Below, in pieces: positions 14,446-57,458 of a DNA stretch of 64,000 nucleotides. Origin of the DNA: Pseudomonadota bacterium (GTDB taxonomy: Bacteria > Pseudomonadota > Gammaproteobacteria > Burkholderiales > Burkholderiaceae_C). The notes below the pieces were generated by a model that was not told the origin of the DNA, ran no database searches, and saw only the letters and a list, made by a program, of their open reading frames with translations. Each line of letters begins with the position of its first letter. Within the stretch, counting starts at the first letter, position 1. Where the stretch lies: NCBI GenBank assembly GCA_020161145.1, contig JAIUPQ010000001.1, positions 806,001-870,000 on the forward strand. The letters are read 5' to 3'. The position numbers and the translations under genes were made by a program.

Positions 14446-14473
14446 GTGCCCCCCAACCTGCCGCTGCGCGTCA

Positions 14474-14490: not shown

Positions 14491-14573
14491 AAGACAACTC
14501 GGGAGCGGCCCTTCGTTTTCTTGGGAGCACCCCCAGGCCCGAAACGGGTCGCCGTCAAGAGGAGAGCCCCGCC

Positions 14574-32240: not shown

Positions 32241-35200
32241 TTACTGCGGCGGCCTCCCCGGCGCCAGCCACACCTCGATCACCCCGGGCGAGGGCTTGAG
32301 CCGGGGCGACAGCGGCTCCACGCGCCAGCCCTGGGGCTTGGCCAGGGTCTGGGCACAGGCCAGGCCGGCCGGGTCGTGGTGGCGCACGGTGCTGGCCGCA
32401 ATCGGCTCGGGGGGCGGGCGGCCGATGTCGCGCGCGGTGCGCACCACGTTTTCCACGGCGGGCACGGTGGCCCCCAGTTTCTGCCAGGTGGCGGCCCAGG
32501 CCAGGGCCTGTTTGCGCTGGCCTTCGCTGTAGATCTGCACGTAGATGGTGCGGCCGCTGCACGGCAGGGCGGCAGGCACCGGTGCCGGCGCGGCGGTGCC
32601 GCCGACGGGTGGCGGGGGCGCCGGCATGGGTACGGGCATGGGCATGGGCAGTGGGGTGGGCAGGGCCTGCGGCGGCGGCGCCGGCTGGGCGGGTGGCTCC
32701 GGCAGGGGCTGGGGCTGCTGGGGCTGGTGGGTCACGGCCAGCGTGCAGCCGGCAGCCGGCCAGCGCTGGGCGGTCAGGTCGGGGCGTGGGCTGTCGCGCT
32801 GGTACAGCGGGGCGCTCTTGGTCTCGTACTGGTCTTCGGCGTACTCGGTCAGCGCGCGGCCGGGGTCGCAAGGGTGGCGCAGCCAGTACGGAGCGGCCTC
32901 GGTGTAGCGGTGGATGCCGTACTGGTAGGGCGACTGGCGCAGCCGCTGCGCCGGGCGCAGATCGGGCGCCAGACTCAGGCAGGTGGGGATCTGGCCGTCG
33001 TGCGCGGCACGCGGGATGCCCACCTCACGCAAGGCCTCGCACGAGGCCGGGCGCTCGGCGGCGGGCAGGTCGGTGCAGGCCTGCCAGGCCTCGGCCACGA
33101 TGCGGCCCGCCAGCGGCGAGTCGGTGAACCAGCTGGCCTCGCCGCCGGGGCACAAGGTGTCGGCGGTATGCACCAGCGCGGCGGCCAGCCGGCCGCGCTC
33201 GGGGGCGCCGCCGGGCAGGGCGGCCCACAGCGTGGCCAGCTCCTTGAGCGCCGCGCGCTGCTGGGTGGCGGCCTGGGTGCCGGTGTTGCGCCAGGCATCC
33301 AGGCCTTGCCAGACGGCCACGCCGGTGGTGACCACGGCGCCCAGGCCCAGGGTGGACTTGACCACGGTGCGCCCGTTGAGCCAGCCGGGCAGGCGCACGC
33401 TGGGCGGTGGGGCAGTGGGCGCGGCGGCGGCGGCCGCCAGCGCGGTGGCCACGGCACCGTGGTCGGCTTCCATATAGGCCATGGGGTTGGCCAGCAGGCG
33501 CTCCAGCAGCGGGCCGCTGAGCAGGCTGCCCAGCGCCAGGCCCAACTGGTGGTAGCTCTCCCATTGCGCCTCGGAGAAGAACTGATCGGCCGTGGTCTGC
33601 TGCGGGAAGGTGGGGTTGGCGTCGTGGTAGTTCAGGATGTCGATGGCCAGGCCCGCGTTCAGGCTGGGCTTGACGATGACCATCAGCCCGCTGGGCGTGG
33701 CGTCGCCGGGGTAGCGGATGCGGGCCAGTGCCAGGCTGGCGTCGCTGGTGGCCGAGGCCAGATCGGACAGCGAGCCGAAGCCGGGCAGGGCCGCGCGGTC
33801 GGTGGGCCGCTGGAAGATGAGTTCGGTGCGCAGGTCGATGCGTGCCTTGCGGGCCAGGTTTTCCAGGTCGCCGAACTGGTAGTCGGGGTCGGCCCCGCAG
33901 TCGGCCACCACGATGAGGTTGGCACGCTGGGCCAGCAAGGGGTAGGCGCCGGTGTTTTCAAAGTGGCCGCCGTCGGTGAGGAACCAGCGCTCGGTGGCGG
34001 CGCCGCCGAACTGCGCGGTCAGCTCGCTCCACATGGCGCGCGACTTGGCCAGCAGACCGCAGCGCCGCTCGGCCTCACGCTGCCACCAATAACCCAGCCG
34101 CAGACCGGCCAGCATGGTCAGCACGGCCACGCCGCCGCGCGTCAGGTTGCCCAGGCCGGGGGCCACGGCGGCGCCCGAGATGGCCGTCCAGCCGCCCACC
34201 GTGGGCTGCTCGTGGTCGGCAGGGGGCAATGGCGCCCAATCTTCCTGCGCCACCCGCGTGTGGCCGGTGGAGGCCACCACCAGCGGCAGGCCCCGGCGGT
34301 CGCGGTTGAAGATGCGGCCGCGTGGATCCAGGGTCTGGTTGATGCAGACGTTGACCAGGTGGATGGGGCCGCCATGCGCCTGCGGCCGGTATTCGGCCCA
34401 GGGCCGGTCGTCACCCTTGGTCACCTCGTGGATGCTGGGGCGGCTGGACGCCATGGCGCCTTGTGCATCGGCGGTGGGGGCCAGCGCGCCCAGCGGGTCG
34501 ATCGGCGAGGGGTCGGCGGGGTCGCGGTAGCGGTAGGGGTTGCCGGCCCCCAGGTAGCTGCGCACCAGGCGTGCGGTGTAGAAGCCGTGCAGCGAGGAGC
34601 GGTTCAGAAAGTCCACGTTGCGCCCGGTGAGCAGCAGGTAGGTCACCACGGGCACGAACAGCAGCAGCCAGGTGGCGGTACTGGCCCAGGGCGCCAGCGC
34701 GGTGGCGGCGCCGCTGGCGTCGGGCTCCAGCCACAGGGCGCTGAACACCACGCGGTAGACCAGGGCGATCCAGCCGCTGGCCACCAGGGCCAGCAGCGCG
34801 TAGCCGGCAAAGTGGGCCAGCGTCAGCAGCAGGCCCATGCCCATGCGGCCGGGGCGCATGTCGCGCACCAGCGGCAGGGCGGCACGCAAGGCGGCCACCG
34901 CCAGGGTCAGGCCGACGCCCAGGCTCAGCAGTTGCCGCGCCTCGAAGGCCCAGAACCAGGCCAGCCGGTCCAGCAACCCCAGACCCAGCAGCAGGGCGCT
35001 GGCCCGGATCCAGAACGCCAGCTTGCGGGTCACGCGGTTGCGCGCGATGCCCATGCGCAGGCTGTCGCCCACGGTGGCAGCGGGTTTGCCGTCCACCGGG
35101 CGGTTGATGGTGTGGCGGGCCAGCACCAGGGCCAGCGCCAGGATCAGGCCTTGCACGCCCACGGCGGCCCAGACCAGGTAGCGTGAGGCCGCCTCCATAC

Positions 35201-36011
35201 CCGGATCGGGCTGCATGGCCCAGGCGAGGTAGCCGCCGCTGGCCGCCACCAGCACCACCAGCACCACCACGAAGACGGCGAGGCTGATCCGTGCCATGGC
35301 TTGCAGCGCCCAGTAGGCGGCCCCCCAGGTGGCAGCGATGAACAGCGTCAGCGGCAGCAGCACCCAGGGTGCGGCCCACCAGGTGGGCAGCCAGCGCATG
35401 GCGGTGAAGAAGCCGCCCGGTGCCTGCGGATCGGTGGCCACCCAGTAGCCGGCCTGGTGCAGCAGCCACCACAGGCCGGCGTCAAAGGCTGCCAGCAGCA
35501 GGCCCGCCAGCACGGCCACCAGGCCCAACTCCACGTGCACGCCCAGCCAGTTGCGCAGATACAGCGAGCCGGCGTGGAGCAGGTCGCGCCCGCCGGTGGG
35601 GATCAGGTAGCGGCCGTTGGCACGCAGCCACCAGGCAAAGCCATGCGCCTTGCTGTCGCCCAGCGCGGCTTCGACGCGGCGGGCGTCATCGGCGTTGGCG
35701 GCCCGGCTGAACAGCGCGCCCAGCATGGCGCCGATGTAGCCGCCGCCCGAGACGGTGGAGAGCAGGTCGAAGCGCAGCAGCAACCGCTGGCGCGCCAGCG
35801 CGGTCAGCAGGCCCAGGCAGAAGGTGGCGCTGCGGATGCCGCCGCCCGACAGGGCCAGGCCCCACAGGCCGCCTTGCTCGGGCAGCTCCAGCGCCTGGCG
35901 CCGCTGCTGGGCTGCGGCGTCGAGCAGGGTGCGGCGTCGGGCCTCGATGCGGTCTTGCGCGTCGGCGCGGGGGGGCGCTGGCGCTGCCGGCGTGGATGCT
36001 GTGTCCTCCAT
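32241..36011 (-). CDS. Very large membrane-embedded patatin-like protein
   Basis: A 1256-residue protein. The patatin lipase site is split: oxyanion loop LSGGGIRSATF (about 55-65) and nucleophile serine in STVSGGGYIGAM (about 88) near the N-terminus, and the catalytic aspartate in FLTDGGHFENTGAYPLL near 680. About ten transmembrane helices occupy residues 155-470 between them. After another hydrophobic stretch (about 885-905) come a Cys-containing region and a Pro/Met-rich linker (about 1100-1150). The 100-residue C-terminal domain (TIYVQIYSEGQRKQALAWAATWQKLGA) resembles SPOR/LytR_C-type folds. The ATG at 36011 has GGAGG upstream. Possible phospholipase. Confidence 0.85.
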   Translation of the reverse strand: MEDTASTPAAPAPPRADAQDRIEARRRTLLDAAAQQRRQALELPEQGGLWGLALSGGGIRSATFCLGLLTALARQRLLLRFDLLSTVSGGGYIGAMLGALFSRAANADDARRVEAALGDSKAHGFAWWLRANGRYLIPTGGRDLLHAGSLYLRNWLGVHVELGLVAVLAGLLLAAFDAGLWWLLHQAGYWVATDPQAPGGFFTAMRWLPTWWAAPWVLLPLTLFIAATWGAAYWALQAMARISLAVFVVVLVVLVAASGGYLAWAMQPDPGMEAASRYLVWAAVGVQGLILALALVLARHTINRPVDGKPAATVGDSLRMGIARNRVTRKLAFWIRASALLLGLGLLDRLAWFWAFEARQLLSLGVGLTLAVAALRAALPLVRDMRPGRMGMGLLLTLAHFAGYALLALVASGWIALVYRVVFSALWLEPDASGAATALAPWASTATWLLLFVPVVTYLLLTGRNVDFLNRSSLHGFYTARLVRSYLGAGNPYRYRDPADPSPIDPLGALAPTADAQGAMASSRPSIHEVTKGDDRPWAEYRPQAHGGPIHLVNVCINQTLDPRGRIFNRDRRGLPLVVASTGHTRVAQEDWAPLPPADHEQPTVGGWTAISGAAVAPGLGNLTRGGVAVLTMLAGLRLGYWWQREAERRCGLLAKSRAMWSELTAQFGGAATERWFLTDGGHFENTGAYPLLAQRANLIVVADCGADPDYQFGDLENLARKARIDLRTELIFQRPTDRAALPGFGSLSDLASATSDASLALARIRYPGDATPSGLMVIVKPSLNAGLAIDILNYHDANPTFPQQTTADQFFSEAQWESYHQLGLALGSLLSGPLLERLLANPMAYMEADHGAVATALAAAAAAPTAPPPSVRLPGWLNGRTVVKSTLGLGAVVTTGVAVWQGLDAWRNTGTQAATQQRAALKELATLWAALPGGAPERGRLAAALVHTADTLCPGGEASWFTDSPLAGRIVAEAWQACTDLPAAERPASCEALREVGIPRAAHDGQIPTCLSLAPDLRPAQRLRQSPYQYGIHRYTEAAPYWLRHPCDPGRALTEYAEDQYETKSAPLYQRDSPRPDLTAQRWPAAGCTLAVTHQPQQPQPLPEPPAQPAPPPQALPTPLPMPMPVPMPAPPPPVGGTAAPAPVPAALPCSGRTIYVQIYSEGQRKQALAWAATWQKLGATVPAVENVVRTARDIGRPPPEPIAASTVRHHDPAGLACAQTLAKPQGWRVEPLSPRLKPSPGVIEVWLAPGRPPQ

Positions 36012-36090
36012 GACCACCTCCACCTGAATTGTTGTCAGAGGTGGCAGGGTAATCCTGCGGCCGGGTGGAGGGAATCCCCCCTAGGAAGGA

Positions 36091-37497
36091 TCAGGCCGGG
36101 GGTGCGATCTGCTCGGCGTAGTCGCTGAGCTGCTCCAGGATGGCCTGGCCGCGCGCGTCGGCGGTTTCGTACAGCGCGTCGATGCGCTCGGCGTACCGGG
36201 CCAGCGTGAGGCTGCCGCCCGCACCGTGGTGCAGCCGCGCGGCGCGCCATTCGGCCCAGCGTTCGCGCTCGGCCTCGGTCAGCAGCGCGGCATGGTGGCG
36301 GGCGCGCCAGCGAAAGGCCAGCTCGTCCAGGCGGGCGTCGTCAAAGCTCATCGCGCGGCCAGGCTCGCGGCGCTGCCGGTCCAGCCGCTGGCGGTCGGCG
36401 CGGCCGATGAAGCCGTCGTACAGCGCCTCGTCCACGTCGCGCGGGCCGAGGGCCTCGCGCCGGTAGACGTCGGGCCAGATGCCGGCCAGCAGCGGCGTCA
36501 CGCGCCGCGCCTCGGGCACGCGCGCCAGCTGGGCGCTCAGGTCGATGCCGGCGGCGGCCGCCTGGGCGTCGCTGAGCACGCGCAGGTTGGCCACCACCAC
36601 CGGCGAGCGGTTGGCATGGATGGTCTTGATGGGCAGCCGCGTCACGCCCTCGGGCAGGTCTTCGCTGCGGGTGTAGAGGCGGGTGCGGATGTCGGCGGCG
36701 TTGAGGGATTCCAGCTCGGCCGGATCGTGCGCCAGATCCCAGACGATGAGTTCGTTGGCGTTGGTCGGGTGCATGGCCAGCGGCCACACCAGCGCCAGGT
36801 GGTTGCGGGCGCTGCCGTACATGGCTGAGGCATGCAGAAACGGCCGGTCCTGGCCGATCTCCTGCCATACCGCGTGCTTGGAGCGCAGCGTCAGGCAGAA
36901 GTCCCAGAGCCTGGGCTGGGCCGCCCGCACGGCGCGGGCCAGGGCGATGGTGGCGCGCACGTCGCTGACGGCGTCGTGGGCGGCCTCGTGGGCCAGGCCG
37001 TTGGCGGCGGTCAGGTGTTCGAGCCTGAACGAGGGCAGGCCGTCTTCGTCGCGGCGCGGCCAGGCCAGGCCTTGCGGCCGCAGCGCGTGCATGGCGCGCA
37101 CGGTGTCGAGCAAGTCCCAGCGCGCATTGCCATGCTGCCATTCGCGGGCGTAGGGGTCTTGCAGGTTGCGCCACAGCAGGTGGCGCGTGACCTCGTCGTC
37201 GAAGCGCAGCGTGTTGTAGCCCACGCCGATGGTGTCCGGCTCGGCCAGCGCGGCCAGGATGGCGTCGGCAAACGCGGGCTCGGGCACGCCGTGCGCCAGG
37301 CAGTGCTGAGGCGTGATGCCGGTGAGCAGGCAGGCTTCGGGCTCGGGCAGGAAGTCGGGCGTGGGCTGGCAGTACAGCGCCAGCGGGGCACCGATTTCAT
37401 TCAGCTCGGCGTCGGTGCGGATGCCGGCGAACTGCGCGGGCCGGTCGCGCCGCGGGTTGACGCCGAAGGTTTCGTAGTCGTGCCAGAAAAAACTCAT
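36091..37497 (-). CDS. sbcB: Exodeoxyribonuclease I
   Basis: 3'-5' exonuclease acting on single-stranded DNA in recombination and repair. The 468-residue protein has DEDDh motifs: HDYETFGVNPRRDRPAQFAGIRTD (Exo I), VGYNTLRFDDEVTRHLL (Exo II) and the HDAVSDVRATIALARAV (Exo III) histidine and aspartate. The SH3-like and C-terminal helical domains follow (NRSPVVVANLRVLSD, LDELAFRWRARH). It overlaps the riboflavin synthase gene by ATGA and lies 79 bp before the patatin gene. Confidence 0.96.
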   Translation of the reverse strand: MSFFWHDYETFGVNPRRDRPAQFAGIRTDAELNEIGAPLALYCQPTPDFLPEPEACLLTGITPQHCLAHGVPEPAFADAILAALAEPDTIGVGYNTLRFDDEVTRHLLWRNLQDPYAREWQHGNARWDLLDTVRAMHALRPQGLAWPRRDEDGLPSFRLEHLTAANGLAHEAAHDAVSDVRATIALARAVRAAQPRLWDFCLTLRSKHAVWQEIGQDRPFLHASAMYGSARNHLALVWPLAMHPTNANELIVWDLAHDPAELESLNAADIRTRLYTRSEDLPEGVTRLPIKTIHANRSPVVVANLRVLSDAQAAAAGIDLSAQLARVPEARRVTPLLAGIWPDVYRREALGPRDVDEALYDGFIGRADRQRLDRQRREPGRAMSFDDARLDELAFRWRARHHAALLTEAERERWAEWRAARLHHGAGGSLTLARYAERIDALYETADARGQAILEQLSDYAEQIAPPA

Positions 37498-38177
37498 GGG
37501 CGCGGCAGTTGCAGCGGGCCGCCCTGCTGGGCCAGCAAGGCTTCGATGGCGGGCGCCAGTGCGCCCAGGCGCTCGTCGAGCACGTCGCGCACGGTGTCCA
37601 CGAAGACCTGGGTCTGGCGCTCGATCTCGATGTTGAGCGCATCGCCCGGCTGCTTGCTGCCGAAGCTGGTCATGCGCAGCGTCTCGGGAATCAGCCAGAC
37701 CTCGAACCAGCCGGCCTGGCGGTCGGCCTCGGCCACGGTGAGGCTGGCGCCATTGATGGCGATATAGCCCTTGGCAAAGATGTAGCGCATCCAGGGCGCT
37801 GGCACGCCGATGCGCAGCACGTGGTTGTTGTCGGGCTGGCGCACGGCCAGCACGGTGCCTTGCACGTCCACGTGGCCCGAGAGCGGGTGGCCGCCGATCT
37901 CGGCACCGTCCCGCGCGGCCCGCTCGACGTTGAGGGCGCTGCCGGGCACGAAGCGGCCCAGCGTGGTCAGGCCCAGCGTCTGCTGCATGACGTCGAAGGT
38001 GGCCTCGTCGCCATGGGTGGCGGTGACGGTGAGGCAGACGCCGTCACAGGCCACGCTGGCGCCCACGGCCAGATCCTGGGTGAAGCCTGGCGGCAGCGCC
38101 AGCGTCAGCGTGCGCAGGCCGGGCAGGTCGGTGAGGGCGGCGACGCGGGCCAGGCCCTGGACGATGCCGGTGAACAT
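37494..38177 (-). CDS. ribE: Riboflavin synthase alpha chain
   Basis: Dismutates two lumazines to riboflavin and a pyrimidine. The 227-residue protein has two lumazine-binding repeats starting MFTGIVQGLARVA and GGHPLSGHVDVQGTVLAV, with conserved ACDGVCLTV and AINGASLTV. The second repeat is somewhat divergent (ADRQAGWFEVWLIPETLRMTSFG). A strong AAGGAGG site lies within the end of the upstream hydrolase gene, and the two genes share one base (TGATG). No other rib gene is nearby; its placement downstream of the NRPS genes may simply be operon sharing. Confidence 0.95.
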   Translation of the reverse strand: MFTGIVQGLARVAALTDLPGLRTLTLALPPGFTQDLAVGASVACDGVCLTVTATHGDEATFDVMQQTLGLTTLGRFVPGSALNVERAARDGAEIGGHPLSGHVDVQGTVLAVRQPDNNHVLRIGVPAPWMRYIFAKGYIAINGASLTVAEADRQAGWFEVWLIPETLRMTSFGSKQPGDALNIEIERQTQVFVDTVRDVLDERLGALAPAIEALLAQQGGPLQLPRP

Positions 38178-39145
38178 CAGGAAACCTCCTTGGGTTGGCG
38201 GGCGATCACGCGCCGGGCCCAGTCGCCCACCAGGGCCAGGATGCGGCGCTGGGCGCTCAACGGGGTGACGATGTGGTCCACGTCCAGCAACAGGTCGGTG
38301 GTGACTTCGGCCATGAAGGGCTGGCCGGCAAAGGCCTCGTGCAACTGGCGCGGGTGGTTGACCTCGAACAGGCCGCTGCCCGAATACCAGATGGCCACCT
38401 CCACACCGCGCGCCGTCAGCGCATTGAGGGTGGCGGCAAAGGCGGCCGGTGGCGGGGTGATGGGCACGCTGTCGCCGGCAAACATGTCGGGTGCGGCCTG
38501 CACATTGCCGGTGGCGCGGCGCACGCGGCCATGCAGCTTGTCGCCCAGCTTGGCGGGCCACTGCGCCAGCGGCGTGCGGCGCCAGTCCAGCCACTGGTAG
38601 CGCAGCCGCGCGGCGCCGGTGACGTAGGCAAAGCCGTCGAACATGGCCAGGCCCACCAGGCGCGGCTCGGCCTCGGCCAGCAGGTAGCCGTTGACGGCGC
38701 CAGAGCAGATGCCGAACTGCATGAAGCGGGCAAAGCCGCGCTGGGCGGTGAGCCAATCCATGGCGGCCTGCTGGTCGCGCACGACCTGGGTCCTGAAGCC
38801 GCCGACCGATGTGGTGGCCGAGGGGCTCTCGCCCAGGCCCGAGATGTCGAACCGAAGGCTGGTGACGCCTTGCCCGGCCAGGGCTCGGGCCAGCTTGACG
38901 TTGACGCGGTTGGGGCCAATGCGCTCACCCACGCCGGTGTTGGTCAGCAGGCAGGCCACGCTGGCGGCCGGCGTGGCCAGCGGCTCGCACAAGATGCCGA
39001 CCAGCCGGCCTTGCGGGCCGAAGCAGGCCACGGATTCGCGGTAGGAGGCCGTCACCTCGGTGGCGCCCGGTTGCCCGGGGCCACTGATCGCCCCTTCGGG
39101 GGGCGGCGAGTCATGGCGGGCGTGGGGGCTGCTCACTTCAGGCAC
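38177..39145 (-). CDS. Alpha/beta hydrolase resembling exosortase-A-associated hydrolase 1 (Cys nucleophile)
   Basis: A 322-residue cytosolic alpha/beta hydrolase: LLTNTGVGERIGPNRV, RFDISGLGESP, nucleophile elbow FGICSGAVNG, acid region (YSGSGLFE) and LLLDVDHIVTP. The elbow has cysteine where serine is normal, as I recall for hydrolase 1 of exosortase-A gene sets. The GTG at 39145 overlaps the partner hydrolase; GTG at 39055 is an alternative nearer the family N-terminus. No exosortase is in the window, so it more likely serves the adjacent NRPS as a thioesterase- or transferase-like activity. Confidence 0.82.
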   Translation of the reverse strand: MPEVSSPHARHDSPPPEGAISGPGQPGATEVTASYRESVACFGPQGRLVGILCEPLATPAASVACLLTNTGVGERIGPNRVNVKLARALAGQGVTSLRFDISGLGESPSATTSVGGFRTQVVRDQQAAMDWLTAQRGFARFMQFGICSGAVNGYLLAEAEPRLVGLAMFDGFAYVTGAARLRYQWLDWRRTPLAQWPAKLGDKLHGRVRRATGNVQAAPDMFAGDSVPITPPPAAFAATLNALTARGVEVAIWYSGSGLFEVNHPRQLHEAFAGQPFMAEVTTDLLLDVDHIVTPLSAQRRILALVGDWARRVIARQPKEVS

Positions 39146-39927
39146 CGTTGGAGCAGCGCTTGCAGCACCGGCGCGGGCACCAGCGGGGTGCCACTGCCGT
39201 CCATGGCGGCCCAGGGCAGCGACTGCGGCAGGCTCTGGTGGCTGACCGTGCCCGCCGGCTGGGCGGCCAGCCAGGACGCGAGGCCGGCGGTCTCGCCGTG
39301 GGTGAGCACGTCGGCGTGGCAGCCGGCGGGCAGGGGCAGATCGGCCGGCCGCAAGGCCTGCAGCTCGGCCGCAAACGCGGGCGAGAGGCCAAAGCCCATG
39401 ACTTCGCCCGCCAGTGGATCGGGTACGGCCTGCAACAGCGCGCTTTGCAGCACGTTGGTGGGCGGAAAGCGCTCGCCCAGGTTGTGCAGGTGGGCCTGAT
39501 GCCAGGTGTGCATCAAGGCCGCGCCATCGAGCACGGGGTCCAGCAACACCAGTTCATGGGTCAGCGCCGGCCCGGCCTGCAAGGCCACGGTGGCGCCCAG
39601 CCGCACCCCCACCCAGACCATGCGCTCGGGCTGGGCGCGGGCCAGCAGCTCGGCATGGGCCAGGGCGGCGTCCTGACGCCAGGCGCTCAGATTGGCCTCG
39701 TCGTCGGCGCCGGCCGAATCGCCGCAGCCCGACCAGTCGAAGCGCATCGCGTCGACGCCCTGCATGGCCAGGCGCTCGGCCAGCACCCGCAGCAAGCGAT
39801 AGGCACGGCTGGTTTCCTGTCCATAAGAGGTGAGCAATAGCACGCCAAGACGGCGGCGCTGGCCTTGCGCGGGGTGCCAGGCACCATAGTGCTGGCGCTC
39901 GGCGGGGCCAAAGAAAAAAGGCTGCAT
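39133..39927 (-). CDS. Alpha/beta hydrolase resembling exosortase-A-associated hydrolase 2 (no nucleophile serine)
   Basis: A 264-residue protein starting MQPFFFGPAERQHYGAWH, with the hydrolase-2 pattern: GVLLLTSYGQETSRAYRLLRVLAERLAMQGVDAMRFDWSGCGDSAG, and WVGVRLGATVAL where the nucleophile serine is replaced by arginine. The fold is probably kept without ordinary hydrolase activity. It starts 8 bp after the phosphopantetheinyl transferase and overlaps hydrolase 1, so the two may form a complex. Function inferred only from neighbours. Confidence 0.8.
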   Translation of the reverse strand: MQPFFFGPAERQHYGAWHPAQGQRRRLGVLLLTSYGQETSRAYRLLRVLAERLAMQGVDAMRFDWSGCGDSAGADDEANLSAWRQDAALAHAELLARAQPERMVWVGVRLGATVALQAGPALTHELVLLDPVLDGAALMHTWHQAHLHNLGERFPPTNVLQSALLQAVPDPLAGEVMGFGLSPAFAAELQALRPADLPLPAGCHADVLTHGETAGLASWLAAQPAGTVSHQSLPQSLPWAAMDGSGTPLVPAPVLQALLQRCLK

Positions 39928-39935
39928 CCGTCTGC

Positions 39936-40542
39936 CTAAGGGCCTCCCAAGGCCAGTGAGAGCACCAAACACCCTGGATTGTATGTGTCGGTATACAGGC
40001 GCAGGCCCTGTACGTCGGTGAGGGTGTCCCAGCCGGTGTGCAGCATTGCCGGGCTGCGCGAGAGGCCGACGCCCCAGCACTTGAGGCAGGCCTCTTTGCG
40101 CGTCCACAGCCGCACAAAGGCCGCCAGCCGCTGGTCTTCGGGCAGGGCCAGCCAGGCCGCGTGCTCAGCGGCCGTCATCACCTGGGCGGCCATGCCGGCC
40201 AGCTCGGCCATGGGCCGTGGCACCTCGATGTCCAGCCCCACGGGCGGGCCGGCGCTGAGCGCCACCCAGGCGTGGCCGGGGCAGTGGCTGAGGCTGAACT
40301 CGGGGCCGCCACGGGCCGCAGGCTTGCCGTGCGGGCCCTGGGTGTAGACCAGGGCAGCGGGCGCCTCGGGCGCCAGCACCCGCCGCAGCGCGGCGTGCAG
40401 GGCCACGTAGGCGGCCGCGTCGCCGGGCCGCACAAAGCGCTGGGCGCGGGCACGCTGGGCGCTGTCCAGCAGCGCCAGATCGGCGAGGGCGTCGATGCTG
40501 ACGGTGGGCAGGGCGTGCAGGGTGACGCCGTCCACCCAGCCG

Positions 40543-40562
<20 letters not shown>
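39936..40562 (-). CDS. 4'-phosphopantetheinyl transferase (Sfp-like)
   Basis: Activates carrier domains by transferring phosphopantetheine from CoA to serine. The 208-residue protein has the family motifs: HGKPAARGGPEFSLSHCPGHAWVALS, VGLDIEVPRP (metal-binding Asp and Glu) and FVRLWTRKEACLKCWGVGL. It overlaps the NRPS 3' end by 20 bp, starting with TTG at 40562; a GTG at 40535 is an alternative. It presumably modifies the three carrier domains of the two upstream genes. Confidence 0.93.
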
Positions 40563-45459
<4,897 letters not shown>

Positions 45460-45480
45460 GAGTTGGCAGCGCTCTGAGGC

Positions 45481-47523
45481 TTATGGGGTGTATTTGATGT
45501 ACTTGCCGGCGCGCGCCGGGTCGGGCACGTACCAGGCCGGGTTGCCGGCAGGGTCGCGCCCCAGGCGGGCGTCGTGCACCGGCGGGTTGTTGGCGTCCAG
45601 CGCGTCTGGTGTGCCGCCAGGCAGCAGGCCGGCTTCCTGCAATTCGCCCACGCTGGCCTGGAAGGCCGCCACGATGGCGGCCACGTCGGCCGGCGTGTGG
45701 GCGGTGGTCAGGAAGCAGGGGAAGTTGTCCAGCAGGTGGATGCCGCGGCTGCGCATCATGGCGAACAGCAGGTCTTGCAGCGGGTGGTCTTCGAGCCAGG
45801 TCACACGCCACAGCGAGGCGAAGTGGCGGATTTCGATGGGGGCGCCCACGATCCGGCAGTGCGCGTTCATCTGCGCGACCATGGCGGCGGTGGTGGCGTT
45901 CAGCTGGGTCTGCATGGCCTCGCCCTGGGCCTTGAAATGCAGCAGCGCGGCCTTGGCGGCGGCCAGCGCCAGCGGGTGGCGCACGAAGGTGCCGGCAAAG
46001 TAGGTGACGCCCACCGTGGGGATGGAGTCGTCGCCGTACTGCCACTGGCCGCCGTCGAGTGCGTCCATGTAGGCGCGCTTGCCGGCAATGACGCCCACCG
46101 GAAAACCACCGCCCACGACCTTGCCGTAGGTGCACAGGTCGGCGTCCACGCCGAACACGGCGCGCGCGCCGCGCAGGTGGCTGCGAAAGCCGGTGATGAC
46201 CTCGTCGAAGATCAGGCAGCTGCCGCTGGCCTGGGTGGCCTCGCGCAGCGCGTGCAGGAACTCGCGTGGCTGCCAGTCAGGGCGGCGGCTTTGCACCGGC
46301 TCGACCAGCACGGCGGCGATGTCGTCGCCATGCTCGCGGATGTAGGCCAGCGCCTCGGGCGTGCCGTAGTCGAGCACGCGGATGTCGCCAAACATGCCGC
46401 GCATGATGCCGGGCGCGGCCGGGATGCCGTGGGCTTCACGGCCGGCGCGCACCAGCACCTCGTCGAAGGTGCCGTGGTAGGAACCCGTGAACGACACCAC
46501 GGTGTTGCGGCCGGTGACCGTGCGGGCGATGCGGATGGCGGCCATCACCGCCTCGGAGCCGGTGTTGCACAGGCCGGCGCGGTCGTGGCCGGTCAGTTCG
46601 CACACCAGGGCCGCCACCTCGCCGGCCAGCGGGTGCTGGGGGCCGATCTCGTAGCCCAGCTCCAGTTGCTGGCGCACCGCCTCTTGCACGAAGTCCGGCT
46701 GCCAGCCAAAGAGGTTCATGCCAAAGCCCGACAGCACGTCGATGTACTCGTTGCCGTCCAGATCCCACATCCGGCAGCCCTTGGAGCGGCCGATGACGAT
46801 CTGGTAGGTGATCTCCTTGAGCACCGGCCGAAAGCCGTTGACCACGCGCGGGTCGGCCATGTGCGGGCGGTGCTGACGGGTGTAGGCCTTGCTGGCCGCC
46901 GTGCGGTCGGTGTAGCGGCGAACGAAGGCGGTCAGCCGCGCCTGCTGACGCTCGGTCAGCGCCTGCGGCTGGGTGTGGATGCGGGCGATGGCGCCGAAGG
47001 CCTTCTTGACGTCGTAGCGCTGGGGCTCGGCAGCCGGCTCGGTCGCCGCCTGTGCCGGTGCAGGCGCGGCCTGGGGTGGCGTGGCCGGCGCCGCCATGGG
47101 CGCGCCGCCCAGCAGCGCCAGTTGCTGCTGCATCAGTTGCATCTGCTGGGCGATGACGGCTTGCAGCAGCGCATCGCCGCCGTCCATGGGGGCCAGCGGA
47201 GCCAGCGTGGGGAGCGCCTGCGGTGCGGGTGCGATTGCGGTGGGCGCCGCCGGCGCGGGTGCGGCCGCGTCGGGCGGCAACTGGGTGTCCAGATAGGCGG
47301 CCAGCTCGGCCACGCTGCGGTGCGACTCCATCAACTGGCGGAAGGTCACCGGCACCTTGAAGGTCTTCTTGATCTGGATGGCGGCCTGCGTCAGCGTCAG
47401 CGAGTCCAGCCCCAGCTCCAGAAAGCTGGTTTCGTGGGCAACGCCCGCCAAGTCGGTGCCGGCCACGTCCTCGAACAAGGCCAGCAGGCGGCGGGTCAGG
47501 TCAGACTGGCGTGGCGTGGGCAT
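45481..47523 (-). CDS. Carrier protein fused to class III aminotransferase (T-AMT)
   Basis: A 680-residue two-domain protein. An acyl-carrier domain comes first (attachment serine about residue 41 in LELGLDSLTLTQ). Then an Ala/Pro/Gln-rich linker (85-170). Then a glutamate-1-semialdehyde-type PLP aminotransferase with NTGSEAVMAAIR, SFTGSYHGTFDE, IFDEVITGFR and PLP lysine about residue 468 in CTYGKVVGGGFPVG. The layout matches the aminating modules of iturin/mycosubtilin-type assembly lines, which aminate a beta-keto acyl group on a carrier. Start at 47523. First gene of the NRPS set; no loading ligase or ketosynthase accompanies it. Confidence 0.9.
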   Translation of the reverse strand: MPTPRQSDLTRRLLALFEDVAGTDLAGVAHETSFLELGLDSLTLTQAAIQIKKTFKVPVTFRQLMESHRSVAELAAYLDTQLPPDAAAPAPAAPTAIAPAPQALPTLAPLAPMDGGDALLQAVIAQQMQLMQQQLALLGGAPMAAPATPPQAAPAPAQAATEPAAEPQRYDVKKAFGAIARIHTQPQALTERQQARLTAFVRRYTDRTAASKAYTRQHRPHMADPRVVNGFRPVLKEITYQIVIGRSKGCRMWDLDGNEYIDVLSGFGMNLFGWQPDFVQEAVRQQLELGYEIGPQHPLAGEVAALVCELTGHDRAGLCNTGSEAVMAAIRIARTVTGRNTVVSFTGSYHGTFDEVLVRAGREAHGIPAAPGIMRGMFGDIRVLDYGTPEALAYIREHGDDIAAVLVEPVQSRRPDWQPREFLHALREATQASGSCLIFDEVITGFRSHLRGARAVFGVDADLCTYGKVVGGGFPVGVIAGKRAYMDALDGGQWQYGDDSIPTVGVTYFAGTFVRHPLALAAAKAALLHFKAQGEAMQTQLNATTAAMVAQMNAHCRIVGAPIEIRHFASLWRVTWLEDHPLQDLLFAMMRSRGIHLLDNFPCFLTTAHTPADVAAIVAAFQASVGELQEAGLLPGGTPDALDANNPPVHDARLGRDPAGNPAWYVPDPARAGKYIKYTP

Positions 47524-51476: not shown

Positions 51477-54400
51477 TCAATTGAACAGCGCGGAGGCCGG
51501 CACCACCTCGCTGGCGCTGGCGCCGGGTTTGCGCCACAGCAGTTGCATGGCGGTGCCGCCGTAGCTTTCGAAGTACTCCAGCTTGATGCTGACGCGCTGC
51601 CCCGCCGCCAGGGTGATGGCCGCCGCCGTGTCGGTGGTGGGGCCGTGCAGCGTCCAGTTGTCGATGACCAACTGGCCGTTGATCCACAGCCGCACACCGT
51701 CGTCGGAGACGGTCTGGAGGACGTAGCTGCCGGCGGCCTCGGCCTGCACGGTGCCCGTCCAGCGCGCCGAGAAGTGGTCGGTGGGCACGCCGGGGCCGGG
51801 GCTGCCGCCGCCCCAGTTGAAGTTGACGGCCTCCGCGCGGGTCAGCAGCGGCGTGCCCGCCAGCGCCTCGCCGGTGAAGTACTGGCCGATCAGGCCGGCG
51901 CCGTCCCGAGACAGGGCCGACATCGGCACCGCCTCGCTGGTGCTGGCGCCGGGCTTGCGCCACAGCAGCTGCATGGTGGCGCCGCCGGTGCGCTCGAAGT
52001 ACTCCAGCTTGATGCTGACGCGCTGCCCCGCCGCCAGGGTGATGGCCGCCGCCGTGTCGGTGGTGGGGCCGTGCAGCGTCCAGTTGTCGATGACCAACTG
52101 ACCGTTGATCCACAGCCGCACACCGTCGTCGGAGACGGTCTGGAAGACGTAGCTGCCGGCGGCCTCGGCCTGTACGTTGCCCGTCCAGCGCGCCGAGAAG
52201 TAGTCGGCCGGCACGCCGGCGCCAGGGCTGGCGCCACCCCAACCGAAGTTGACGGCCTCGATGCGGGTCAGCACCGGCTGGCCCGCCAGGGCCTCGCCCG
52301 TGAAGTACTCGCCGACCAGACCCGTGTTGACGGGAAGGGGCGCGGCCGGCTCCTCGCGGCCGATCTGCTGCACGTAGTCGGTCACCTGGGTGAGTTGGGT
52401 GGCGCTGAGGCTGACGTTGGTGTGCGCGGCAATGGCGCCGGCCACGCTGGCGGCCGAGCCGTCGTGCAGGTACGGGCCGGTGGCCCAGACGTCGCGCAGC
52501 GTGGGCACGTCCAGCCCCGTGAGCGGGCCACCCAGGCGCTGGCCGCTGGTGGGCTTGAGGGTGCCCACGTTGACCAGCGTGCCGCCCGCACTGTTGGTGA
52601 AGGCGCTGCCGCTGTGGCAGCTGCTGCAGTTGCTGGCGAACACGGTGCGGCCGGCCAGGGCGCTGGCGGTCAGCGTGCCGTCGGCGTTGCGCAGCGGGCT
52701 GGGCGCGGCGGTGGTCAGGCTGTTCACGTAGGTGGCCAGGGCGTCCAGGTCGGCGCTGACGCCGGCCTTGGGGGTGCCCAGCGGCTGGCTGCGCGAGCCG
52801 ACGAAGAAGTCGGCGTTGCTCATCAGCCCGGTGCCCAGCGAGAAGTTGCGGATCTGGCCCTCGAAGTCCTGCACCTCGTCGAAGTTGCCCGTCCAGTGCA
52901 GGCGGCCCTGGCCCGCATGGCCCACCAGCGCAATGGTGTTGCGCAGGCCTTCGCCGGCATGGGCCATGTCCCAGATGCGGCCATCGGCGCCGCCGCCTTC
53001 GTGGCAGGTGGCGCAGCTCATGTAGCCGTCGCGCGCCAGGCGGGGGTCGCGGGCGTCGTAGAAGAGCTGCTTGCCCCGCAGCACGTTGGCCGCCAGGGCC
53101 TCGGTGGCCACGCTGGCCGTGGTGTTCACCAGCGGCATGCGGCTCTGGCCTTGCTGCACCAGCGGGCGCAGGTCATAGGTGCCCACGCTGCGCGCCATGA
53201 AGTTCTGCACGTACAGCGTCAGCCCGTCGGCCGAGACGGCGACGCCTTGCGGCGCAAAACCGGTGTCGGTGCGGAAGACCTCGCGGCTGCGCAGGGGGTC
53301 GATGACCGCCACCTGGCGGCTGGTCTCCAGCGTCACGAACAAATAGCTGCCCGTGGGGTGGAAGGCGGCCGCGCTGGCCAGGCTGGCGTTGTCGTGGTCG
53401 ATGCGGGCCGCCAGGTCGTCGCTGGTGCGGCCGTCCAGCGTGATGCGTGAGGTGGCGGCGCGCACGGTGTTCTCGAAGTTCAGATCCAGCCCATCGCGCT
53501 GGCGCCCGCGCAAGATGTTGTCCTGCTTGCCCGGCACCCAGGCGAACTGGCCGCTGGGGGCGATGACGGGGGCGCCCAGGTAGTTGGGCACGCCGCGGCC
53601 GCTGACGGTGGTGTCGGGCGCGCTGCTGTGCTGCAGCCGCACGCTGCGCCGCAAGGCCAGGGTGCCCGCGTCCAGCACGCGCACCTCGCCGCCGCCGTCG
53701 GTGCCCGGGCGGGCGGTGGCCTCACCGGTCTGCGGTGCGGTGACGAAGCGGCTCACCAGCAAGTCGGTGCCGGCGGCGTTCAGGGCCAGCTGCCGCACCT
53801 CGGGCATGACGCCGGCACGGGCCTGGATGCTGCCCGTGGCGGTCAGGCGCATGACCTCACCCACCGCAGAGAGGCTGACGTAGACGCTGCCATTGGCCGC
53901 CGCGACCACGCCAAACGGCTGGGAGGCGCGGGGCAAGGCCACGGTCTGCACCACGCTGAGGGTGGTGGGGTTGATGACGCTGAGCGAGGCGCTGTCCTGG
54001 TTGGCCACCCAGATGCGGCCATCGGGCGCCACGGTCAGCGTGCGTGGCCGCTGGCCCACGGCGATTTCGGCCACGCGGGTCTGCATGGCGGTGTCGATGA
54101 CGGCCACCGAGTTGTTGTCGGGGTTGACCGTCCACAGACGGCTGCCACTCAAGGCCAGCGTGCCACTGCTGCGGCCGGCCTGGCCGGTGGCGCCCTGAAC
54201 GGCTTGCCAGAAGGTGATGACGCTGATGCGGCCGTCGGCATCGCGTGCGGTCAAGGTCACCCAGTACAGGCCGGGGTTGGCGTAGGTGTGGCCACCCAGC
54301 GGGCTGTCGCTCCAGTCGCTGGTGGCGCCATCGCCGTAGTCCCAGCGGTAGCTGTAGGTGCCGCTGGAGCTGGGGGTGCCGTCCCACTGCGCCGCCGTGC

Positions 54401-57400
54401 CGGCGGCCACGATGGGGGCCTGGATGCCGCCGCTCCATTGGGCCCGTGCGCTGTCCACGGTCAGCGTGAAACGTGCCACGCTGTTGCCGCCACGGCCATC
54501 GCTGGCGGCCAGCGTGACGTCGTAGCTGCCCGCGACCGACGCGGTGCCGCTGATCTGCCAGCCGCCCTGGGGCGTGGTGCTCAGCGACAGGCCGGGAGGC
54601 AGGCCGCCGGCCGTCAGGGTGACGGTGTCGCCGTCGGGGTCGCTGGTGGGCACGGGCAGTTGGGCCGCCACGTCTTGCTCGACGCGGATGACCGCTGGTG
54701 CCAGTACGACGGGCGGCTGGTTGTCGGCGCGTTGGCCGAAGACCTCGACCTCGGCCAGTTGCAGGTAGTTGGTGCCGGGCAGTTGCACCCGCACGTAGCG
54801 CCCGCGGGCACCGGTGGCGGCCACGGTGGTGACCGCCGCCGTGATGCCGCTGGGGGAGACTTTCCAGACCAGGGGGTCGGCCAGCAGGTCGGCGTAGGTG
54901 CGGCCGGCCATGGGGGTGTCCGACACCAGCACGCGGGCGCCGGCCAGGCGCTCGGCGCAGCAGTCGGTGCGGTTCCAGATGCGCACGGCCGTCAGGGCGT
55001 GGCTGTAGCTCAGGTCCACCTCCCACCAGGCGTTGGCGTCGAGGTTGGTGACCGCCATGGTGCGGGCACCGTAGTTGCCGTTGGTGTTGCCGTCCACGGC
55101 GCGGGACGCCGGGTTGCCGCCTTCCCAGATGCTGGACTGCGAAGCCACCTTGCCCAGGGCCACGTTGCCGAAGTAGACGGTTTTTTCGTCCCGCTGGCCG
55201 CCCAGGCGCGCGAAGTCGCCCGTGGCGACGGCCGTACCCCAGTTGACCCCGTCGGCCGACAGCCAGACGCGGTAGGTCGTGATGATGCCGTTGACGTAGG
55301 GCGGCTGGGGCGGCAGTTGCCGCAAGCCGGTCACGAGCTGGGGGCGCCCCATGTCGATGGTGATCTGATGTGGCAGCGGGGCATTGCCGTTGACCCAGGC
55401 GGTGTGCCAGAGGGTGCTCGCCTGGCCGTCCAGCACGGCGCTGGCGGGGTGGTTGCCATCCTGGCTGTCGGTGCTGGCCGTCCAGCCGGTGCGGGGCAAG
55501 TTCTGCCCGTCGGCGCCCAGCAGGTTGATTTCCGCCACGCTGCTCCAGGGGTTGCCGTTGAGCTCGCCCAGCGCCTCCAGGCGCACGTAGCGCGGCTGGA
55601 ACTGCGCGGCGGCGTTGACCGACCAGATGAAGTCGCTGGCCACCGTCACGTCGCCGTTGGCGCCGCCGCTGGCCGTGGCCAGCAGCGTCACGCGCCAGGT
55701 GCCGGCGCTGGTGGGCTGGCCGCTCAGGCGGCCGCTGGCCGGATCCACCGCGAGGCCGGGTGGCAGGTTGTTCGCCGCGACCCGCAGCGTGGTGCCGGCC
55801 GGGGTGGTGAGGGTGGGCTGAACCAGTGCCGTGGCACCGACGGATCCGGTGGCGTCGTCGATGGGGGTGATGGTGGGCGCGCCGTCGCGCACCACGCGCA
55901 CGATGCGGGCCACCGAGGGCACGCCGGCATCGGTCATGGCGAACAGCATCCAGTCGCCCGGCAGGGCCAGGCCGGGGTGGCGCGGCACGTCCACCGCGTA
56001 GCGGCCGCCGCCCAGCGCACGAAAGCTCAGGGGCAGGCGGCGCTGGTCGTTGTTGACGGTGTGGGTGGTGGACGAGGCGCGCACCATGGCCAGCGAGGCG
56101 ATGGGGGTGTCGGTGGTGATCTCCACCGTCTGGCCGTAGGCCCAGCGCGCCGGCACGCTCTGGATGGCCGGTCGCGTGGCCGGAGTGCCATCGGCATTGA
56201 GCAGGTAGCTGGGGGTGTAGACCTGCACATCCGGGTGGTTGGCCGCACAGCCGGCGCCGCACAGGCCACCGCCGCTGGAGAGCACGCGGCCGTCGGGCAG
56301 CAGCAAGGCCACGCTGTGGTAGTTGCGCGGCACCTGCATGGCGGCCAGCGGCGTGAACTGCTCGGTGGCCGGATCCCACAGCTCGGGCGTCAGCACCGAG
56401 TTGTTGTCCGAGAAGCCGACGGCATAGGTCTGGCCGCCCACCACCATCACCTGGCCGTTGGGCAGCACCACGCTGTTGTGGTACGCGCGGCGGTAGGCCA
56501 TGGGGTTGATCTTGCGCACACGCGCGCCGTTGTCCACGTCGATCACGTAGCTGTTGGCGTTGGACTCGACGTGTTGGTAGGTGCGGCTGCCGCCGACCTT
56601 GAGCAGCATGCCGGCGTCGTACATGACGAGGTTGCCGCTGATCGAAGACTCGTCGTCGCTGCGCAGGCCGGCGTTGGTGATCTGGCCGTCGCCGGTGGGG
56701 TTGATCCAGTGCATGGACGGGCCTGGCCCGGCGTGGAAGACCTTGCCGTTGGCGGCCGGCACCAGCATCATGTGGCTGTCCATGGCGAAGTTCTGGCCCA
56801 CGTCGGCCACCAGGAACGGATCCACGGGCACACCGGGCAGGCGGCTCCAGGTGCCATTGGGGCTCCAGACTTCGGCATGCTTGCCGCCCAGGCCGCCCGA
56901 CCACGAACCACCCAGGGTCAGCACGCGCCCGTCGGGCAGCAAGGTGTTGGCCTGGTAGCCGCGCGGAATGTTCATGTTGCCGCTGGGCGACCAGACCCCG
57001 GTGGCGGGGTCGAACAAGCTGGTCTTGGCGGCGGTCAGCCCGCCGTTCACCAACAGCCGCCCGTCGGCCAGGTTGGTGGTGCCAGGGCAGAACATGTTGT
57101 GGCCCGTCTCGGTGACGGTGCGCTCGGTCACCGTGCCGGTGGCGGGGTCAAAGGTGGCGAAGTAGGTGCGACCGGTGGCCGAGTTGAAGCTGAATTTCTC
57201 CTCGGCCGACCACAGCAGCACCTTGCCGTCGGGCAGGTTGGCGGCAGCGGCGGGCACCAGCGGCAGCGTGTAGACGGGTGACCAGTACCCCACGCTGGGC
57301 GGCGTCACGTTCTGTGTGGCCAAAGCCTGGCGACGGGTGGGATCCGTTGCCGCCGCTTTGGCATCTGGCTCGTCACTGCCGCCGCCGCAAGCGGCCAGCA

Positions 57401-57458
57401 GCGTGGTCAATATGAGGGCGGCAAGCGATGCCGGCACGGCGTGGCGAGCGTGTGACAT
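51477..57458 (-). CDS. Giant lipoprotein: copper radical oxidase, YVTN propeller, di-haem cytochrome c and two PA14 domains
   Basis: A 1993-residue lipoprotein (lipobox cysteine 24 in LLAAC). Residues 50-525 are a galactose-oxidase-like (AA5) propeller plus DUF1929 domain. All galactose-oxidase ligands have counterparts: Cys124 and Tyr168 (the cross-link pair), Trp186 in GGSWSGG, Tyr380-His381, and His466 in THTVNNDQRR. Putative-Ig, two discoidin-like domains (620-910), cadherin-like and PKD-like domains (910-1090) follow. A YVTN propeller (1095-1440) leads to cytochrome c motifs CATCH (1482-1486) and CSSCH (1611-1615), then PA14 domains (1714-1848, 1856-1990). Probably oxidises an extracellular alcohol, aldehyde or glycan, perhaps passing electrons to the haems. 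Confidence 0.93.
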   Translation of the reverse strand: MSHARHAVPASLAALILTTLLAACGGGSDEPDAKAAATDPTRRQALATQNVTPPSVGYWSPVYTLPLVPAAAANLPDGKVLLWSAEEKFSFNSATGRTYFATFDPATGTVTERTVTETGHNMFCPGTTNLADGRLLVNGGLTAAKTSLFDPATGVWSPSGNMNIPRGYQANTLLPDGRVLTLGGSWSGGLGGKHAEVWSPNGTWSRLPGVPVDPFLVADVGQNFAMDSHMMLVPAANGKVFHAGPGPSMHWINPTGDGQITNAGLRSDDESSISGNLVMYDAGMLLKVGGSRTYQHVESNANSYVIDVDNGARVRKINPMAYRRAYHNSVVLPNGQVMVVGGQTYAVGFSDNNSVLTPELWDPATEQFTPLAAMQVPRNYHSVALLLPDGRVLSSGGGLCGAGCAANHPDVQVYTPSYLLNADGTPATRPAIQSVPARWAYGQTVEITTDTPIASLAMVRASSTTHTVNNDQRRLPLSFRALGGGRYAVDVPRHPGLALPGDWMLFAMTDAGVPSVARIVRVVRDGAPTITPIDDATGSVGATALVQPTLTTPAGTTLRVAANNLPPGLAVDPASGRLSGQPTSAGTWRVTLLATASGGANGDVTVASDFIWSVNAAAQFQPRYVRLEALGELNGNPWSSVAEINLLGADGQNLPRTGWTASTDSQDGNHPASAVLDGQASTLWHTAWVNGNAPLPHQITIDMGRPQLVTGLRQLPPQPPYVNGIITTYRVWLSADGVNWGTAVATGDFARLGGQRDEKTVYFGNVALGKVASQSSIWEGGNPASRAVDGNTNGNYGARTMAVTNLDANAWWEVDLSYSHALTAVRIWNRTDCCAERLAGARVLVSDTPMAGRTYADLLADPLVWKVSPSGITAAVTTVAATGARGRYVRVQLPGTNYLQLAEVEVFGQRADNQPPVVLAPAVIRVEQDVAAQLPVPTSDPDGDTVTLTAGGLPPGLSLSTTPQGGWQISGTASVAGSYDVTLAASDGRGGNSVARFTLTVDSARAQWSGGIQAPIVAAGTAAQWDGTPSSSGTYSYRWDYGDGATSDWSDSPLGGHTYANPGLYWVTLTARDADGRISVITFWQAVQGATGQAGRSSGTLALSGSRLWTVNPDNNSVAVIDTAMQTRVAEIAVGQRPRTLTVAPDGRIWVANQDSASLSVINPTTLSVVQTVALPRASQPFGVVAAANGSVYVSLSAVGEVMRLTATGSIQARAGVMPEVRQLALNAAGTDLLVSRFVTAPQTGEATARPGTDGGGEVRVLDAGTLALRRSVRLQHSSAPDTTVSGRGVPNYLGAPVIAPSGQFAWVPGKQDNILRGRQRDGLDLNFENTVRAATSRITLDGRTSDDLAARIDHDNASLASAAAFHPTGSYLFVTLETSRQVAVIDPLRSREVFRTDTGFAPQGVAVSADGLTLYVQNFMARSVGTYDLRPLVQQGQSRMPLVNTTASVATEALAANVLRGKQLFYDARDPRLARDGYMSCATCHEGGGADGRIWDMAHAGEGLRNTIALVGHAGQGRLHWTGNFDEVQDFEGQIRNFSLGTGLMSNADFFVGSRSQPLGTPKAGVSADLDALATYVNSLTTAAPSPLRNADGTLTASALAGRTVFASNCSSCHSGSAFTNSAGGTLVNVGTLKPTSGQRLGGPLTGLDVPTLRDVWATGPYLHDGSAASVAGAIAAHTNVSLSATQLTQVTDYVQQIGREEPAAPLPVNTGLVGEYFTGEALAGQPVLTRIEAVNFGWGGASPGAGVPADYFSARWTGNVQAEAAGSYVFQTVSDDGVRLWINGQLVIDNWTLHGPTTDTAAAITLAAGQRVSIKLEYFERTGGATMQLLWRKPGASTSEAVPMSALSRDGAGLIGQYFTGEALAGTPLLTRAEAVNFNWGGGSPGPGVPTDHFSARWTGTVQAEAAGSYVLQTVSDDGVRLWINGQLVIDNWTLHGPTTDTAAAITLAAGQRVSIKLEYFESYGGTAMQLLWRKPGASASEVVPASALFN
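51489..52319 (-). repeat. Tandem 426-bp direct repeat encoding the two PA14 domains
   Basis: The segments coding for residues 1714-1848 and 1856-1990 of the large lipoprotein are nearly identical at DNA level with a period of 426 bp. For example, the stretches around 51595-51675 and 52021-52101 match base for base over most of their length. This points to recent duplication or gene conversion. Confidence 0.9.

What the first reader, a model, noticed from the sequence alone, without database searches (positions are those of the whole stretch)
36091..47523. Compact T-AMT / C-A-T-C-T NRPS locus with exosortase-style hydrolases and no release domain
A carrier-aminotransferase, a one-adenylation-domain NRPS, a phosphopantetheinyl transferase and two unusual alpha/beta hydrolases are closely spaced or overlapping. 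They sit between valS and riboflavin synthase/exonuclease I. There is no ketosynthase, loading ligase, thioesterase or transporter, so the acyl starter must come from elsewhere and release must be unconventional. The aminotransferase suggests a beta- or omega-amino acyl building block. The product cannot be assigned to any family I know.
Basis: partly seen in the sequence, partly recalled or inferred. Interest (0 to 1): 0.82.

Follow-up and report, generated by a model that had tools for sequence, protein, structure and literature searches.

The report
Natural-product assembly line split in two
These genes look like the second half of a bacterial assembly line for a small unknown compound; a matching first half sits elsewhere in the same genome, and the product may be released by a separate pair of hydrolase-like proteins whose distant relatives occur in exopolysaccharide gene clusters.

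Summary
The genes are real and intact: T-AMT, C-A-T-C-T NRPS, PPTase and two alpha/beta hydrolases in a tight gene string running into ribE and sbcB. The missing starter machinery is elsewhere. In 9 of 199 other family genomes and 3 of 15 congeners the T-AMT lies in a frame of 1547-5032 aa; where read, it is fused behind A-T-KS-AT. This genome holds exactly that A-T-KS-AT part as a lone intact gene on another contig (G000:C8:267198-271793), whose seven best matches elsewhere are those same clusters. Best reading: a split, trans-acting assembly line that loads an amino acid (homoserine-like code), adds malonate, transaminates, then adds glycine. Release is probably by Hyd1/Hyd2: Hyd1 has Cys at the nucleophile position in 18 of 18 rows, Hyd2 Arg in 17 of 18; five exosortase-A pairs show the same. 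Pair and thioesterase co-occur in 1 of 54 loci. The A-CP-KS-AT-CP-AMT layout was catalogued in 2013 (PMC3870968). The unlinked split and the Cys/Arg pair look new. No product or activity is shown, and decay is not excluded.

The parts
45481..47523 (-). T-AMT gene (680 aa): carrier domain plus class-III aminotransferase
   Evidence: PF00550 and PF00202; LGLDSL, TGSEA, FDEVI, YGKVVGGG motifs; relatives 47-75% identical
47290..47493 (-). carrier (T) domain of T-AMT
   Evidence: PF00550 stretch
47104..47163 (-). Q-rich helix-like segment (AVIAQQMQLMQQQLALLGG) after the T domain; possible docking or dimerisation element
   Evidence: read from the sequence; similar tail at the C-terminus of the split A-T-KS-AT protein
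45862..46803 (-). aminotransferase domain (Pfam-matched part)
   Evidence: PF00202
40543..45459 (-). C-A-T-C-T NRPS (1638 aa)
   Evidence: 2 x PF00668, PF00501, 2 x PF00550; both HHxxxDG motifs, both carrier serines, A-domain core motifs present
42574..44019 (-). adenylation domain, predicted glycine (nine residues read: DILQIGVVW)
   Evidence: glycine for 4ZXH and 5U89 from PMC11253843 passages
40945..42243 (-). second condensation domain, followed by a carrier domain with no adenylation domain
39936..40562 (-). Sfp-like 4'-phosphopantetheinyl transferase
   Evidence: PF01648; GLDIE and WTRKEA motifs
39133..39927 (-). Hyd2: alpha/beta-hydrolase fold with Arg (codon 39601-39603) at the nucleophile elbow; probable pseudo-hydrolase
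38177..39145 (-). Hyd1: alpha/beta hydrolase with Cys (codon 38705-38707) at the nucleophile elbow; proposed trans-acting release enzyme (true start may be 39055)
37494..38177 (-). ribE (riboflavin synthase), start overlaps the Hyd1 stop; same gene string, not part of the pathway
36091..37497 (-). sbcB (exodeoxyribonuclease I), end of the gene string, not part of the pathway

Best explanation
The window genes are the downstream half of a hybrid NRPS-PKS assembly line whose upstream half, an A-T-KS-AT protein of 1531 aa, is encoded at another place in the same genome (G000:C8:267198-271793). Proposed working: (1) the C8 A-T activates and loads an amino acid, homoserine-like by its pocket code; (2) its KS-AT adds one malonate, giving a beta-keto chain that passes in trans to the T domain of the window's T-AMT protein; (3) AMT turns the beta-ketone into a beta-amine, giving a 3,4-diamino acyl chain; (4) the NRPS adds glycine and passes the chain to the last, A-less carrier, which the same A domain may also charge with glycine; (5) Hyd1, a Cys-type hydrolase, with Hyd2 as non-catalytic partner, offloads the chain in trans in place of the thioesterase domain that relatives carry. 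Shown by sequence: domains, intact motifs, presence of both halves, fused order in relatives, Hyd/TE near-exclusion. Inferred: trans cooperation of the halves, all substrates, all chemistry, the release role.
For: T-AMT lies in a longer frame in 9 of 199 other family genomes (1547-5032 aa) and 3 of 15 other congeners (2302-2467 aa). Pfam shows AMP-binding, PP, KS, AT, PP, AMT in both full-length relatives tested. The C8 gene has AMP-binding, PP, KS, AT and stops there, with KS, AT (HAFH), A and carrier residues present (motifs read by eye where the script's patterns were too strict). So the genome holds each domain of the fused protein once. Its seven best matches among 199 other genomes (52-54% identity) are the A-T-KS-AT parts of T-AMT clusters G032, G091, G005, G071, G165, G016, G049. 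Three loci have the same protein boundary but with the genes still adjacent: L073, L096, L109. The C8 protein ends in a Q-rich tail; such a tail is at the end of 3 of 3 split KS-AT proteins by pattern, plus L073 by eye, and before the T domain in 0 of 26 fused ones. An SGNH/GDSL-like gene near C8 is 36% identical to the one inside the G207 cluster, and that gene type is near 9 other family clusters. Glycine: pocket matches solved Gly domains 4ZXH and 5U89. Homoserine: one residue off a code reported as Hse (PMC7524897). Hyd pair and TE together in 1 of 54 loci, Fisher p = 5.8e-5.
Against: No test shows that the halves interact or are co-expressed. They are on different contigs, at least about 349 kb apart if on one replicon. 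The Q-tail pattern was written after seeing the sequences and rests on four proteins. Sister groups of the two halves differ in detail and with low support (KS with L056/L057 0.41, AT with L054 0.85, C1 with L069 0.49). G000 has the most private changes at otherwise invariant sites in KS (14) and C1 (16) among nine sequences. The Fisher test ignores shared ancestry; within Burkholderiales/Xanthomonadales-type loci it is weaker (1/15/5/4, p = 0.012), and L078 has both Hyd pair and TE. G049 and G165 have neither, nor a nearby PPTase. The last Lys of each pocket code was added by my script, not read, and the pocket positions are recalled. Hyd2 of G005 has Gly, not Arg.
Confidence: 0.64

Rival explanations
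1. Decay: an ancestral fused cluster was broken by rearrangement or partial loss; both halves are still open but no longer make a product.
For: The unlinked arrangement was seen only in this genome among the loci I inspected. G000 has long terminal branches in KS, AMT and C1 and the most private changes in KS and C1. No transporter or regulator is linked.
Against: All genes and catalytic motifs intact on both sides. The partition falls exactly between AT and T with no domain lost or doubled. Third-position GC (0.81-0.91) resembles neighbouring genes. valS of this lineage is also long-branched (0.46 against at most 0.103 in 15 congeners; a different taxon set from the cluster trees, so an imperfect control).
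Confidence: 0.2
2. Self-contained compact locus: the T domain of T-AMT is charged with a keto-acyl chain from fatty acid synthesis or another source; the C8 gene serves something else.
For: The five genes form one tight string. L168 (G445) shows an AMT of this type without an AT in its 1.5 kb flanks.
Against: C8 is the only full-length match to the missing part in the genome and its best relatives are this cluster family. In the relatives read, KS-AT is fused or adjacent (L164 shows none within its 1.5 kb flank).
Confidence: 0.1
3. On release: Hyd1/Hyd2 are proofreading (type II) thioesterase-like or tailoring proteins, and the chain leaves by the last C-T module or by spontaneous cyclisation.
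For: L078 has both a Ser-type TE and the pair. Foldseek finds only general esterases and lipases. Hyd2 lacks a nucleophile.
Against: The pair is otherwise seen in loci where no TE was found (15 of 16), and 12 of 28 TE rows in the family also have Cys at the elbow, as Hyd1 does.
Confidence: 0.3
4. Assembly error: the two halves are really adjacent.
For: Draft genome in 13 contigs.
Against: Both genes lie inside long contigs (935 kb and 597 kb), each with its own start, stop and ordinary neighbours.
Confidence: 0.04

Closest known systems
Orphan A-CP-KS-AT-CP-AMT hybrids listed in PMC3870968 Table 2 (Pedobacter heparinus C6XWU5, predicted Nrp-Mal-Gly-Pk; related rows for Thiocapsa and Thiorhodococcus)
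   Same: Same domain order up to AMT; a predicted amino acid-malonate-glycine product; no product named in that table (section 7 read)
   Different: Here split between AT and T on two contigs; C-A-T-C-T; hydrolase pair instead of a TE domain. I did not compare those accessions directly; Pedobacter loci L079, L081, L082, L097 stand in for them
Mycosubtilin MycA aminotransferase (PMC3870968, passages)
   Same: PKS-NRPS interface AMT of the Aminotran_3 family, amination of a carrier-bound polyketide
   Different: MycA starts with a fatty-acid ligase (recalled); here the starter domain is an amino-acid A domain with the Asp of that class, and the system is split
Exosortase A hydrolases 1 and 2 (TIGR03100, TIGR03101)
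   Same: Paired homologues; Cys at the elbow of hydrolase 1 and Arg at that of hydrolase 2 in 5 of 5 exosortase-A pairs read
   Different: Scores below cut-off; here with NRPS genes and no exosortase in the genome
ObiF1 Cys-type thioesterase (PMC6668435, passages)
   Same: Cys-His-Asp alpha/beta hydrolase releasing an NRPS chain
   Different: ObiF1 TE is a cis domain; Hyd1 is a separate protein of another subfamily with no demonstrated activity

Membership tests
A-T-KS-AT-T-AMT / C-A-T hybrid clusters | T-AMT with class-III (GSA-like) aminotransferase | tested here: met
A-T-KS-AT-T-AMT / C-A-T hybrid clusters | A-T-KS-AT fused or adjacent upstream | tested here: not met
   absent from the window locus; present once elsewhere in the genome
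A-T-KS-AT-T-AMT / C-A-T hybrid clusters | C-A-T following the AMT, glycine-type pocket | tested here: met
A-T-KS-AT-T-AMT / C-A-T hybrid clusters | release by TE domain or Hyd2-Hyd1 pair | tested here: met
   pair present, no PF00975; 41 of 54 loci have TE or the pair, 13 neither
Mycosubtilin/iturin type | fatty-acid AMP ligase starter | tested here: not met
   C8 starter reads as an amino-acid A domain, code DLKNLGSDV with Asp at the first position
TIGR03100 / TIGR03101 | curated score cut-offs | tested here: not met
   55.2 of 168.45 and 83.9 of 202.75 bits
Exosortase A (XrtA) system | exosortase in the genome | tested here: not met
   no PF09721 match in G000; 105 of 200 family genomes have one
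Functional assembly line | product made, both halves required | not testable with these tools
   needs genetics and biochemistry

The most novel reading that the evidence does not exclude
Hyd1 (Cys) and Hyd2 (Arg at the nucleophile position, pseudo-hydrolase) form a two-protein offloading machine for carrier-bound aminoacyl or peptidyl chains. It was shared between this NRPS-PKS family and the exosortase-A exopolysaccharide loci, where hydrolases 1 and 2 have no assigned function that I know of. Here it serves an assembly line split over two genomic loci and held together by matching Q-rich helices.
Probability: 0.3. Interest if true: 0.76.

Novelty: new variant of a known kind. Interest (0 to 1): 0.52.

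Why it matters
Cluster-finding tools that look only at neighbouring genes would call this locus incomplete and see the C8 gene as a separate orphan; joined, they give a complete predicted pathway. The Cys/Arg hydrolase pair gives a testable idea for a pair of exosortase-A genes of unknown role, and the split boundary offers a natural place to cut and rejoin PKS-AMT modules.

Tried and rejected
Exosortase link: XrtA-type EPS genes flank the cluster in 4 of the 9 family genomes with long flanks (G032, G165, G049, G005), but this genome has none near either half and no exosortase; 5 of 9 cluster-bearing family genomes have one (G005, G033, G071, G091, G129) against 105 of 200 overall, so no association. 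I therefore do not claim an EPS role.

Single in-frame stop between T-AMT and NRPS as a sign of a broken fusion: dropped, since relatives such as G165, G049 and G212 also have two proteins there.

T-AMT as fused to the NRPS in relatives: my first reading frame lengths; wrong for most, the extra length is A-T-KS-AT upstream.

sigma-70 promoter scan: nothing found, 0.5 expected. Paper searches for the pathway gave no description of it; the library lacks most subscription journals. One search gave one paper naming TIGR03100 (listing only, not read).

I could not measure triad geometry.

Short frames in the order-wide search: G445 (585 aa) looks like another arrangement, with a KS on the other side; G427 has an AT next to the AMT; L164 shows no AT in its short flank. 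So I do not claim that the unlinked split is unique.
Full report
Observation. The genes are as described: on the minus strand, T-AMT 45481-47523, C-A-T-C-T NRPS 40543-45459, PPTase 39936-40562, Hyd2 39133-39927, Hyd1 38177-39145, then ribE and sbcB. From the NRPS start onward the genes overlap or are at most 8 bp apart, and ribE starts on the last base of the Hyd1 stop. Catalytic motifs are intact. These two C domains are the only ones in the 3.5 Mb genome.

The missing half. Searching T-AMT in the family found 10 of 200 genomes including its own; in the genus 4 of 16; in the order 11 of 399. In the 12 other family and genus genomes the T-AMT lies in frames of 1547-5032 aa, in its own genome in 718. 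Two full-length relatives (G212, G207) read A-T-KS-AT-T-AMT by Pfam, and tblastn layouts of 61 sources (59 distinct) show A and KS-AT in the same protein or directly upstream for most of the closer relatives. Searching the missing part in the window's own genome gave one full-length match: a 1531-aa gene at G000:C8:267198-271793, 56% identical to G212 over the searched part. Pfam reads it as AMP-binding, PP, KS, AT and nothing more. The reverse search with this protein found 19 of 200 genomes; the seven best others, 52-54% identical, are the T-AMT cluster genomes G032, G091, G005, G071, G165, G016 and G049, at those clusters; G129 and G033 follow lower, and nine further genomes are weaker or partial matches. 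The two loci are on different contigs, at least about 349 kb apart if on one replicon (contig sizes).

Is the split old, working or decayed? The boundary AT | T-AMT also occurs with the genes still adjacent in L073, L096 and L109. Every one of these split KS-AT proteins, and C8, ends in a segment like VQQQLALMQQQL (3 of 3 by pattern, L073 by eye); none of 26 fused ones has it before the T domain, while 14 of 26, and the window T-AMT, have it after the T domain. I read this as a possible docking element; the pattern was made after seeing the sequences. Trees place both halves in the same Burkholderiales clade but with differing sisters and modest support. This lineage has long branches and the most private changes in KS and C1; valS is long-branched too (0.46 against at most 0.103), which suggests the lineage rather than the locus, but the taxon sets differ. 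Decay stays possible at about 0.2.

Substrates. The window A domain reads DILQIGVVW at nine pocket positions (positions recalled). Its pocket region best matches PDB 4ZXH and, third, 5U89, both glycine enzymes according to a table in PMC11253843 (passages). In five of the six loci for which two A domains after the AMT were read, both have DILQ-type codes (L072, L075, G033, G091, G129; not L077), so one glycine domain may serve both carriers of the A-less module. The C8 starter domain reads DLKNLGSDV; DLKNFGSDVK is given as homoserine by antiSMASH 4.1 in PMC7524897 (passage), itself a prediction. The AT has the HAFH motif, recalled as malonyl-type. AMT domains of this family add an amine to the polyketide chain, shown for MycA (PMC3870968, passages).

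Release. The NRPS has no TE. Hyd1 has Cys at the nucleophile elbow in 18 of 18 rows; Hyd2 has Arg in 17 of 18 and Gly in G005 (two rows in each are duplicates of others, L070 = G016 and L074 = G071). AlphaFold models (mean pLDDT 84.0 and 89.6) put these residues between strand and helix, where the elbow should be. Hyd1 also keeps H261 and D140 in all 11 rows of A2. Five true exosortase-A pairs have the same Cys and Arg. Among 54 distinct loci with AMT followed by C, 15 have the Hyd pair only, 25 a TE only, 1 both (L078), 13 neither, some cut by contig ends (lists made by hand; the TE calls of L092, L095 and L100 are weak). Of 28 TE rows, 12 have Cys, 13 Ser, 3 unclear; the 12 Cys ones all have a second C domain. 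So a Cys-type release step recurs in two forms, as a fused TE or as Hyd1 in trans. This is correlation, and phylogeny is not corrected for.

Other parts. An SGNH/GDSL-like gene near C8 (C8:275128-276198) is 36% identical to one inside the G207 cluster, and its type is near 9 other family loci (the profile included the C8 copy). Pfam gives it no family. Its role is unknown.

Known or new. PMC3870968 (section 7 read) lists Pedobacter heparinus A-CP-KS-AT-CP-PLP1 with a predicted Nrp-Mal-Gly product, so the kind is known as an orphan. I found no description of the pathway, of the unlinked split, or of the Cys/Arg pair in the searches named under Tried and rejected. I rate it a new variant of a known kind. 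The most open point is whether the two halves work together; the most interesting is the hydrolase pair.

Noticed in passing
window 51477-57638 (-): 2053-aa protein with PA14, F5/8 type C, galactose-oxidase-like, kelch, PKD and cytochrome c peroxidase domains together: an odd secreted-looking multidomain mix.
   Followed up: no
window 32241-36023 (-): 1260-aa patatin-like protein with what look like membrane segments and a proline-rich tail, next to sbcB.
   Followed up: no
window 11831-14581 (+): Ser/Thr protein kinase with TPR repeats.
   Followed up: no
L022 and L013 (G032), also G049, G165, G005: In four other genomes the related cluster sits by exosortase-A-type EPS genes (ATPase, chain-length factor, tyrosine kinase, outer membrane protein), though three of the four genomes (G032, G049, G165) have no exosortase match.
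   Followed up: partly
L038-L053 (valS of 16 congeners): valS of this genome is only about 70% identical to congeners and has by far the longest branch; three congeners show an internal TAA within the matched valS stretch.
   Followed up: no
L154 (G076, same genus): A Hyd1-like gene (82.9 bits to TIGR03100, below cut-off) with a Hyd2-like match beside it, in a congener without a T-AMT match.
   Followed up: no
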